Shown in pieces: positions 1-3,193 of a stretch of DNA of 64,000 bases (its first letter is position 1; every line of letters starts with the position of its first letter). The stretch is from Candidatus Neomarinimicrobiota bacterium (lineage in GTDB: Bacteria; Fidelibacterota; SORT01). The notes under the pieces are model-generated. The model saw nothing but the letters and a program-made list of their open reading frames with translations. It did no database searches and had not been told where the DNA came from. Made by a program: the position numbers and the translations under genes. Where the stretch lies: contig JACZTG010000002.1 in assembly GCA_022573815.1 (NCBI GenBank), forward strand, positions 1 through 64,000, written 5' to 3'.

Positions 1-1
1 T

Positions 2-55
2 GTTATGGGTCAGTATAAAGATTTAATGAAGAAATACCCTAAGGTGGTGGCATGA
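2..55 (+). CDS. 3' end of an upstream gene (partial)
   Basis: An open frame enters from the left edge and ends at the TGA at 53-55, leaving 17 readable residues (ending KKYPKVVA). The stop overlaps the ATG of the next gene in an ATGA arrangement, which suggests translational coupling and one transcript. Too little is left to say what the product is. The compact coupled layout of this and the next two genes resembles phage or plasmid operons more than the rest of the window. Confidence 0.5.
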   Translation, partial: VMGQYKDLMKKYPKVVA

Positions 56-276
56 AATCATACCTTGAACTTTGTGAATCAGTAATGCTGAATCCAGCAT
101 GGCCTTTGGAAGGTCCATTGAAATCACTGACATTGGAAGTGGAGAAGGGTATACGGACAGGTGATCTTTGTGTTGAGTATTGTCAAGAGAAAATTGACAG
201 CTTGCAGAAGTGGTTGAATGATATTAAGCTTGCTCACCATAGAGAGCATATTGAATTGGAGGAAGCAAAGAAATGA
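52..276 (+). CDS. Small hypothetical protein, phage-like operon
   Basis: A 74-residue protein that I do not recognise. It is soluble, with no signal peptide or membrane segment, and is predicted by eye to be mostly helical (a helix around residues 24-55 and a charged tail rich in E, K and H). Its ATG lies inside the stop of the preceding frame and its own TGA overlaps the ATG of the next gene by four bases. AAGGTGGTGG just upstream can serve as ribosome binding site. Such tightly overlapped, short, helical proteins are typical of phage or mobile-element operons, which is an inference from layout, not from homology. Confidence 0.55.
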   Translation: MKSYLELCESVMLNPAWPLEGPLKSLTLEVEKGIRTGDLCVEYCQEKIDSLQKWLNDIKLAHHREHIELEEAKK

Positions 277-1250
277 CAATAACTGATGACAAAACGCTGA
301 GCGACCTGCAGGGTGATGTCATAGACAGCAGGGATCTGATTGCTGCTATGGATTACTGGAGTGGTGAGGTGGATAACCTGCAGGAAACAATAGATGATCT
401 GAACGATGATACATCTGCAGAGAAACCAACAAAGGAATTGCTTGATGAACTCGAAGAGGCAAAAAATTTTATTCATAAAAAGATTGTAGAGATTTTACTT
501 CCGAATAATCTTAGAACAAACAAGAAACTGCTCGAAAATGCTTTATCAAAAATCGATAAAGGTGACACAATTATTACATTTAACTATGACCTGTTATTAG
601 AACAGGGATTGTTAAAAAGAGGGCTTTGGAATCCTAAAGATGGATATTGCATAGGAGAAGTAAAAGAGGACGAATTAGATATAATAGCAAATCTAGACAA
701 ATCTGATGTAAGAGTATTAAAAATGCATGGATCTATTTCTTGGGAATCTCCTTCATGGCACGACAGTAATTTAAGGATATTATTAAAAGATCCGTATAAT
801 GATTTACCGTTTTTTGATGAAATTGATACACCGAAAAACGATGTTGAAAAAAAATATACGTCTTATCAGAGTCACCATGTAATTCTACCTACTTTTATGA
901 AATTCTATAGACATAAATGGGAAATTGAACTAGTGAAACTGGCTGCTAATGCTCTTTCTAAAACAGAAGAAGTGTATATTGTTGGATACAGCCTACCGGA
1001 AGCAGATGCAATGGCAAATTTTCTTTTTTCATCAATTAAGCAAGATATTGTAATAAAAATTATTAATCCGAATGCAGGTGAATTAAGAGAGAGATTAGTA
1101 AGAATATTTGGATTGTCGCGGAGCAAGATAATAGATGAAAGTAGCAAGTTGGAAGTTTGGCTGGAAAATGATTGTAAATACATAGAACATGAAAAAACAC
1201 TCAAAAATGAAGAAATGATTAATCGTATGATTGAAGAGATGGATAATTAA
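273..1250 (+). CDS. Chimeric protein: phage-like N-terminus joined to a truncated SIR2-like domain
   Basis: 325 residues. Residues 1 to about 65 are acidic and contain a VIDSRDLIAAMD stretch, which I recognise from short phage/plasmid proteins. From about residue 66 to the end the protein matches the SIR2-like family used in anti-phage defence: FNYD at 103-106, MHGSISW at 151-157 and VGYSLPEAD at 237-245. SIR2-like proteins usually begin with a Rossmann strand carrying a GAGxS-type glycine motif and have 80-120 residues before FNYD. Here that segment is absent and the foreign leader stands in its place. The DNA also becomes visibly more AT-rich after about position 465. NAD binding is therefore probably damaged, so this may be an inactive remnant or a deletion product. 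Family assignment of the C-terminal part is fairly secure; activity is doubtful. Confidence 0.7.
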   Translation: MTITDDKTLSDLQGDVIDSRDLIAAMDYWSGEVDNLQETIDDLNDDTSAEKPTKELLDELEEAKNFIHKKIVEILLPNNLRTNKKLLENALSKIDKGDTIITFNYDLLLEQGLLKRGLWNPKDGYCIGEVKEDELDIIANLDKSDVRVLKMHGSISWESPSWHDSNLRILLKDPYNDLPFFDEIDTPKNDVEKKYTSYQSHHVILPTFMKFYRHKWEIELVKLAANALSKTEEVYIVGYSLPEADAMANFLFSSIKQDIVIKIINPNAGELRERLVRIFGLSRSKIIDESSKLEVWLENDCKYIEHEKTLKNEEMINRMIEEMDN

Positions 1251-1282: not shown

Positions 1283-3193
1283 CTACTCTTCCAAAGTAGA
1301 GAGATCGCCTTCATCTTCGCCTAACGCTCGCGCTTTAAGCACTCGTCGCATTATTTTTCCGCTTCTGGTTTTGGGGAGCGAGTCCACAAACTCTATTGAC
1401 TCAGGTCTGGCAATTGGGCCGATTTCATCCCGAACGTGCTGGGAGAGTTCGTCCCGAAGCTCATCGGAGCTTTCCAAGCCGGCATTCAAGATTACGAATG
1501 CGTGAATAGCGTTACCCTTTAGTTCATGAGGCAGACCGATAGCGGCAGCCTCTGAAACTGATTTATGGCTAACGAGAGCGCTTTCAATTTCCGCTGTTCC
1601 GAGCCGGTATCCGCTGACTTTTATGACATCGTCAATGCGTCCGATAATCCATACGTAACCATCAGAATCAATGCGCGCGGAATCGCCCGTTTTATACCAT
1701 CCCTGTTTCTCGTAATCTTTCCAGTAAACCTCTTTATATCGCTCGGGGTCGCCGTAAATTGTGCGTGCCATTCCGGGCCAAGGAGCTTTCAGGACCAGTT
1801 TTCCCTCTTCCCCCACTCCGACATCATTGCCATCATCGTCAACCACTCCGACTTCATTTCCGAAGAAAGGTTTGGTAGCGGAGCCGGGTTTCAGCGGCGT
1901 AATTGGAAGAGGAGTAATCACAAAACCACCCGTTTCCGTTTGCCACCAGGTGTCCATGATAGGACACTTTCCTTTGCCTATAACACGATGATACCATTTC
2001 CACGCTTCGGGATTTATTGGTTCACCCACTGAACCCAAAAGACGAAGCGAGCTGAGGTCATATTTTTCCGGCCATTCATCGCCGAAACGCATAAGTCCTC
2101 GAATGGCAGTTGGGGAGGTATAAAGAATGTTTATGCCGTATTTCTCAATCATCTGCCACCAGCGGCCCGGGTCAGGATGGTTTGGCGCTCCTTCATACAT
2201 CACAATTGTGCTGCCGTTGATGAGCGGGCCGTAGACGATATAGCTGTGTCCCGTTATCCATCCGGGATCCGCCGCGCACCACCAAACATCTTCGTCCTTA
2301 ATGTCGAATACATATTTGTGGGTCACGGATGTATAAAGAGTATATCCGCCATGAGTATGAAGCACGCCCTTTGGTCTTCCGGTGGTACCGGAGGTATAAA
2401 GAATAAACAGCATATCCTCGGCGTCCGTTACCTCTGTTTCACATTCACTGCCGGCATTTTCAAAGAGCTCGTGATACCAGAAATCTCTACCATCCTGCAT
2501 TTCCACATCATGCTCGGTGCGCTTAACCGTGATGCAGGTTTGAATGGTGGGTGCACGTTTCATTGCTTCATTTGAAATCGCCTTTAGGTCGGTGATTTTT
2601 CCTCTTCTCCAGCCGCCGTCGGCTGTGATCAGTAGTCGGCTTTGAGCATCGCCGATCCGCTGAGAAAGCGCTTCAGCGCTGAATCCGCCGTAAACTACAC
2701 TATGAGCGGCACCGATTTTTGCGCAGGCGAGCATAGCGAAAGCCAATTCGGGAATTTGCGGCATATAGATGGTTACGATATCGCCTTTATTTACGCCCTT
2801 ATCTTTTAGAATGTTGGCGAATTTTGAGACTTCTTCGTTGAGCTCTTTGTAAGTGAATTTGCGCGAATCACCCGGTTCACCTTCCCAAATGATAGCGGTT
2901 TTTTCAGCAGTTTCATTTTGCTGATGCCTGTCAACGGCATTAGCAACGATATTAATTTTTCCTCCGGTGAACCACTTATAAAACGGCTTCTCTGATTCAT
3001 CTAAAACGGTATTCCATTTTTTATACCAGCTGAGTTTTTCAGCCTCATCCGCCCAAAAACCCTCTCTGTCTTCAATAGATTTTTTATACAGGGCATCGTA
3101 GTCCTTAATAATAGCTTGATCTACAACTTCGTCAGACGGGTTGAACAGCTCGCTGTGTTCAGCAGTAGTTGTTATTGAATCATCATTAGCCAT
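1283..3193 (-). CDS. acsA: Acetyl-CoA synthetase
   Basis: 636 residues, the normal length for AMP-forming acetate-CoA ligase, which makes acetyl-CoA from acetate, ATP and CoA in the cytoplasm. The adenylate-forming core motif YTSGTTGRPKG is at about residues 266-276. The TGD and GRIDDVIKVSGYRLGT hinge motifs are in the C-terminal third, and PKTRSGKIMRR near residue 610 carries the lysine that is acetylated by Pat-type enzymes in this family. The ATG is preceded by GGAGGAACAG, a clear ribosome binding site. It lies 89 bases downstream of the TRAP transporter genes on the same strand, so acetate could come from the imported substrate; that link is only inferred. Confidence 0.96.
   Translation of the reverse strand: MANDDSITTTAEHSELFNPSDEVVDQAIIKDYDALYKKSIEDREGFWADEAEKLSWYKKWNTVLDESEKPFYKWFTGGKINIVANAVDRHQQNETAEKTAIIWEGEPGDSRKFTYKELNEEVSKFANILKDKGVNKGDIVTIYMPQIPELAFAMLACAKIGAAHSVVYGGFSAEALSQRIGDAQSRLLITADGGWRRGKITDLKAISNEAMKRAPTIQTCITVKRTEHDVEMQDGRDFWYHELFENAGSECETEVTDAEDMLFILYTSGTTGRPKGVLHTHGGYTLYTSVTHKYVFDIKDEDVWWCAADPGWITGHSYIVYGPLINGSTIVMYEGAPNHPDPGRWWQMIEKYGINILYTSPTAIRGLMRFGDEWPEKYDLSSLRLLGSVGEPINPEAWKWYHRVIGKGKCPIMDTWWQTETGGFVITPLPITPLKPGSATKPFFGNEVGVVDDDGNDVGVGEEGKLVLKAPWPGMARTIYGDPERYKEVYWKDYEKQGWYKTGDSARIDSDGYVWIIGRIDDVIKVSGYRLGTAEIESALVSHKSVSEAAAIGLPHELKGNAIHAFVILNAGLESSDELRDELSQHVRDEIGPIARPESIEFVDSLPKTRSGKIMRRVLKARALGEDEGDLSTLEE

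What the first reader, a model, noticed from the sequence alone, without database searches (positions are those of the whole stretch)
273..1250. Chimeric SIR2-like gene with the NAD-binding start replaced by a phage-type leader
The first about 65 residues belong to a phage/plasmid-type small protein while the rest is a SIR2-like defence domain starting in mid-fold (FNYD at residue 103). The Rossmann glycine motif that normally comes first is missing, and base composition shifts near position 465. This is either a deletion that fused two genes or a recombinational exchange in a defence locus.
Basis: partly seen in the sequence, partly recalled or inferred. Interest (0 to 1): 0.55.

Follow-up and report, generated by a model that had tools for sequence, protein, structure and literature searches.

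The report
Beheaded SIR2 defence gene, phage-like front
Right at the end of an assembled contig, a bacterial anti-phage-type SIR2 gene has lost its NAD-binding front third and is joined in frame to the start of an unrelated phage-type gene, most likely a dead defence-gene remnant in a variable gene island, or possibly an assembly join.

Summary
The ORF at 273-1250 (325 aa) is a two-part join. From about residue 58-60 it is a SIR2_2 protein orthologous to a gene at the same place, beside acs, in the related genome MT.SAG.2. That orthologue and two intact homologues (396 and 393 aa) carry about 120-135 further N-terminal residues with the GAGxS glycine motif, which the window gene lacks. It keeps the FNYD and HGS motifs. 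Residues 1 to about 60 are the N-terminus of a phage small-protein family (18-21 bits; shuffles reach at most 13) but lack that family's conserved C-terminal core. So both genes are broken at the join. No relative with this architecture was found in 245 phylum genomes or in the collections scanned. The queF-acs interval is variable in this family, so a real recombinational loss is plausible; a contig-end chimera cannot be excluded without reads. Either way the product has no NAD-binding glycine loop and is probably inactive. Low interest.

The parts
52..276 (+). 74-aa ORF upstream of the fusion, overlapping its start by ATGA (phage-like small-gene arrangement); no family found
   Evidence: Pfam, PHROGs, PADLOC and tblastn give nothing above noise
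258..264 (+). GGAGGAA, Shine-Dalgarno-like, 8 nt before the ATG at 273
   Evidence: read from the sequence
273..449 (+). residues 1-59: N-terminus of a phage small-protein family (GDVIDSRDLI motif); that family's conserved C-terminal core (TLIRxSYFxEYAEEL...) is missing
   Evidence: profile scores 21.3 and 18.3 bits against best shuffles 11.9 and 13.0; 79 of 80 viral relatives match the core pattern
446..462 (+). junction zone: DNA alignment to the MT.SAG.2 SIR2 gene starts at 446, GC breakpoint at 460, protein homology from residue 58-60
450..1250 (+). residues 60-325: SIR2_2 protein without its first roughly 120-135 residues (no GAGxS strand and loop)
579..590 (+). FNYD, residues 103-106; N104, Y105 and D106 correspond by motif to the catalytic Asn-Tyr-Asp of ThsA and DSR2
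   Evidence: literature passages
726..734 (+). HGS, residues 152-154; H152 corresponds by motif to the catalytic His
   Evidence: literature passages
1283..3193 (-). convergent acetyl-CoA synthetase-like gene (acs), the syntenic anchor shared with MT.SAG.2 and G004; the name is assigned by reading the sequence, no family search was run on it

Best explanation
A remnant of a SIR2-like NADase-type defence gene in a variable island between queF and acs of a Marinimicrobia genome. The 5' third of the gene, coding for the first Rossmann strand and the GAGxS loop, was lost and replaced by phage- or plasmid-type DNA through a non-homologous join around 446-462. The join happens to be in frame with the start of a small phage-type gene. 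Shown: the two-part make-up, the loss of the N-terminal third relative to an orthologue at the same locus, the truncation of the phage-type gene, the variability of the locus among relatives, and that the window starts at the contig end. Inferred: that the join is in the organism's DNA and not made in assembly, and that the product cannot bind or cleave NAD and therefore gives no defence.
For: Orthologue in MT.SAG.2 (SORU01000001.1) beside acs, 60-65% identical, matching only from residue 58-59. Intact homologues L015 and L016 match from residue 60 and have the GAGxS start. The missing N-terminal part is not found elsewhere in the 96%-complete genome. The phage-type leader is supported by two profiles. 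The interval is variable: queF-M14-acs without SIR2 in G004, M14+SIR2 in MT.SAG.2, and in the window genome queF followed by Vsr and a restriction-like gene at the end of contig C18. The retained SIR2 part has kept 61 of 64 positions that the three relatives share, so the break is recent if real.
Against: The foreign piece is exactly the terminal tail of the contig and has no second copy. In 245 phylum genomes the phage family profile's best hit is the window itself; the five other hits at E 0.001-0.009 are short stretches in reading frames of 422-1126 aa and look like coiled-coil noise. No sequenced relative shows the join. That C18 and C2 are neighbours is inferred from synteny, not seen.
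Confidence: 0.55

Rival explanations
1. Contig-end chimera: the assembly, or an amplification or library artefact, joined about 450 bp of co-occurring phage or plasmid DNA to the chromosome inside an otherwise intact SIR2 gene.
For: Window base 1 is contig base 1; the tail has no second copy in the genome; no relative has the architecture; both genes are cut in mid-body; an in-frame join is about a one-in-three chance and needs no explanation (inference).
Against: No direct or inverted repeat of 12 bp or more in 1-1300, and no inverted copy of the tail elsewhere in the genome as a self-chimera would leave. A tail of 450 bp would need several reads or a chimeric molecule (inference). The intact 5' part is absent from the rest of the bin.
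Confidence: 0.38
2. A functional fusion: the phage-type N-terminus and promoter or ribosome-binding site now drive a shortened SIR2 protein with a new role, for example a partner or inhibitor of full-length SIR2 proteins.
For: Open frame over all 325 codons with a GGAGGAA site 8 nt before the start; retained part conserved, 61 of 64 shared positions, pairwise dN 0.22 against dS 0.91 with MT.SAG.2 over 133 codons.
Against: The pairwise dN/dS reflects mostly history before the break. The GAGxS strand and loop are missing, no second instance exists, and there is no other SIR2 homologue of this family in the genome for it to act on.
Confidence: 0.05

Closest known systems
Pfam SIR2_2 (PF13289) defence-type SIR2 proteins; stand-alone homologues L015 (396 aa) and L016 (393 aa)
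   Same: Residues 60-317 align over their whole C-terminal part; FNYDLLLEQ and HGS motifs kept.
   Different: Lacks the N-terminal third with GAGxS; has a 59-residue foreign leader instead.
ThsA (Thoeris) and DSR2 SIR2 domains
   Same: Asn-Tyr-Asp and His of the catalytic pocket are present by motif (passages of PMC7272460 and PMC11263360 read); PADLOC ThsA and SIR2 profiles match weakly.
   Different: No SLOG or helical sensor domain recognised; N-terminal third missing; no partner gene visible on the contig.
phrog_25535-like phage small proteins (one member annotated 'antirestriction protein ArdA' in Citromicrobium phage vB_CbaS-RXM)
   Same: N-terminal GDVIDSRDLI stretch and acidic linker.
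   Different: The conserved C-terminal core is missing; PHROGs did not call phrog_25535 on the leader itself.

Membership tests
SIR2_2 (PF13289) | Profile score above the curated cut-off | tested here: met
   34.5 bits against 24.5
Functional SIR2-type NADase effector | N-terminal Rossmann strand and GAGxS glycine loop | tested here: not met
   Absent; present in the MT.SAG.2 orthologue, L015 and L016
Functional SIR2-type NADase effector | Catalytic Asn (in NYD) and His (in HGS) | tested here: met
   N104-Y105-D106 and H152; roles from passages
Functional SIR2-type NADase effector | NAD cleavage or anti-phage activity | not testable with these tools
   needs an enzyme or plaque assay
Thoeris ThsA | C-terminal SLOG domain | tested here: not met
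   Only SIR2_2 found in P0001 by Pfam
Thoeris ThsA | Adjacent thsB (TIR) gene | tested here: inconclusive
   Downstream neighbour is acs; the upstream side runs off the contig
phrog_25535-like phage small protein | N-terminal IDxRD motif region | tested here: met
   21.3 and 18.3 bits against best shuffles 11.9 and 13.0
phrog_25535-like phage small protein | Conserved C-terminal core (TLIRxSYF...) | tested here: not met
   Present in 79 of 80 viral relatives, absent from P0001

The most novel reading that the evidence does not exclude
The fusion is real, expressed from the phage-type start, and the beheaded SIR2 half is retained as a useful protein (for example a dominant-negative or phage-borne decoy of SIR2 defence), carried by the phage-like DNA that invaded the locus.
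Probability: 0.04. Interest if true: 0.5.

Novelty: new member of a known kind. Interest (0 to 1): 0.13.

Why it matters
If real, it is one more example of a defence gene broken by recombination with mobile DNA in a variable island, and it maps such an island (queF-acs) in a little-studied Marinimicrobia family. If an assembly join, it is a warning that fused ORFs at contig ends enter databases as apparent new domain architectures. Neither changes ideas about SIR2 defence.

Tried and rejected
Rejected: a self-chimera of the same genome (tail 1-470 has no second copy). Rejected: the missing SIR2 front lying elsewhere in the assembly. Rejected: that the two-part architecture is an established family (0 further instances: 5 genomes of the family; 245 of the phylum; viral contigs; plasmids and phages; one relative without the leader in genome contigs).

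Led nowhere: AlphaFold2 model of the chimera from a two-row alignment had mean pLDDT 44.3 and pTM 0.28, so it was not used for a fold search; phmmer against PDB gave only weak or irrelevant hits; a degenerate DNA pattern for the leader found nothing in viral contigs; close-relative searches with the leader and with the 74-aa protein found nothing; paper searches gave no paper on the MT.SAG genomes and the listings (titles and abstract starts only) named none on this fusion. Looking for the M14 gene in the own genome gave only C-terminal sorting-domain matches.

Full report
WHAT IS THERE. The ORF 273-1250 (+) is real and open over 325 codons, with a Shine-Dalgarno-like GGAGGAA 8 nt before its ATG. 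It overlaps the stop of a 74-aa ORF (52-276) by ATGA, as small phage genes often do (general knowledge). Pfam calls SIR2_2 at residues 99-244 (34.5 bits, cut-off 24.5) and PADLOC calls several SIR2 profiles.

THE CONTIG END. The window starts at base 1 of contig C2 of the genome (167,322 bp). So the leader and the 74-aa ORF are the contig's terminal tail. The tail's DNA (1-470) has no second copy in the 2.39-Mb, 96%-complete genome; the other 11 matches listed are chance stretches of 15-32 bases.

THE SIR2 PART HAS LOST ITS FRONT. In 5 genomes of the same family, one other genome (G003, found again by name as Candidatus Marinimicrobia bacterium MT.SAG.2, SORU01000001.1) carries the orthologue, beside acs as in the window. 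It is 60-65% identical and matches only from residue 58-59. In 245 genomes of the phylum, 5 have a match: the window genome, MT.SAG.2, G198 and G221 (both 37%, residues 60-317), and G216 (a short piece, residues 224-290). The G198 and G221 proteins (396 and 393 aa) are open from an ATG through MSRLFIIGAGVS and MNKVFIFGAGFS. The alignment shows that the MT.SAG.2 protein and these two have about 120-135 residues, including GAGxS, before the point where the window protein begins to align. The catalytic motifs remain: N104-Y105-D106 and H152 match by motif the N112/Y113/D114 and H152 of ThsA and the N133/Y134/D135 and H171 of DSR2, residues shown or argued to be needed for NAD cleavage (passages read in PMC7272460, and PMC11263360). 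Note that Pfam SIR2_2 starts mid-protein in the intact homologues too, so the Pfam start alone would have been a poor argument.

THE LEADER. The best database lead was a weak tblastn hit (E 0.8) to a protein annotated antirestriction ArdA in Citromicrobium phage vB_CbaS-RXM, which belongs to phrog_25535. A profile from 10 phage members scores the leader 21.3 bits against 11.9 for the best of 2000 shuffles. A profile from 70 distinct proteins taken from 80 IMG/VR loci scores it 18.3 bits against 13.0 for the best of 5000 shuffles, and the SIR2 part -1.1. 79 of the 80 proteins match the family's C-terminal core pattern; the window protein does not have it. So the phage-type gene is truncated as well. 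PHROGs itself did not name phrog_25535 on the leader (best phrog_32584, E 0.008), so the assignment rests on these profiles. In the window genome the family profile hits only this place. In 245 phylum genomes it hits 6, of which 5 are short stretches at E 0.001-0.009 inside reading frames of 422-1126 aa and look like noise.

THE JUNCTION. Local DNA alignment to the MT.SAG.2 gene begins at base 446; the best GC breakpoint is 460 (0.417 to 0.305). 5 of 2000 shuffles reach that gain, and 7 of 251 placements of the same contrast along the window are as large. The phage profile's alignment runs to residue 62 with low confidence, overlapping the start of SIR2 homology, so the exact base cannot be fixed. 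There is no repeat of 12 bp or more in 1-1300.

THE LOCUS. MT.SAG.2 reads queC-queF-M14 peptidase with sorting domain-SIR2-(convergent) acs-TRAP transporter (names by reading the sequences). G004 has queF-M14-acs without SIR2. In the window genome queF lies 1.5 kb from the end of another contig, C18, followed there not by the M14 gene but by a Vsr endonuclease (Pfam 73.4 bits) and a restriction-enzyme-like gene (PADLOC E 0.005), both read on the opposite strand to queF. An M14 orthologue was not found in the genome, only sorting-domain matches. G001 and G002 contigs end inside the M14 gene, and G001's acs piece is on another contig. So the interval between queF and acs is variable, and the window gene most likely stands at its acs edge. 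That C18 and C2 adjoin is inferred from synteny.

STATE OF THE GENE. The retained SIR2 part keeps 61 of 64 gap-free positions at which MT.SAG.2, L015 and L016 agree (36 of 37 and 25 of 27); MT.SAG.2 does equally well in the mirror test. Pairwise dN 0.22 and dS 0.91 over 133 codons. If the join is real it is recent. The MT.SAG.2 copy is itself damaged in its record: no ATG, GTG or TTG before the GAGxS strand, and a frameshift in an A-rich tract; these may be sequencing errors.

VERDICT. Best reading (0.55): a SIR2 defence gene beheaded by recombination with phage- or plasmid-type DNA in a variable island, now without its NAD-binding loop and probably inactive. Close rival (0.38): a contig-end chimera. 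A functional fusion is unlikely (0.05). The AlphaFold2 model was too poor to use (mean pLDDT 44.3).

Noticed in passing
L043:258-1410 (contig C18 of the window genome, 1.5 kb from its end): Vsr mismatch endonuclease and a restriction-enzyme-like gene next to queF, where relatives have an M14 peptidase gene: probably the other side of the same variable island.
   Followed up: partly
L003:1145-2316 / L005:3632-4803 (MT.SAG.2): The orthologous SIR2 gene has an intact GAGxS front but no usual start codon (ATA where homologues have ATG) and a frameshift in an A-rich tract: a second damaged copy, or sequencing error.
   Followed up: partly
L049:372-3644 (G004): queF-M14-acs interval without SIR2: the state of the locus without the insertion.
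   Followed up: yes
window 1-51: End of another small ORF (VMGQYKDLMKKYPKVVA) overlapping the next start by ATGA, so the tail holds three coupled small genes.
   Followed up: no
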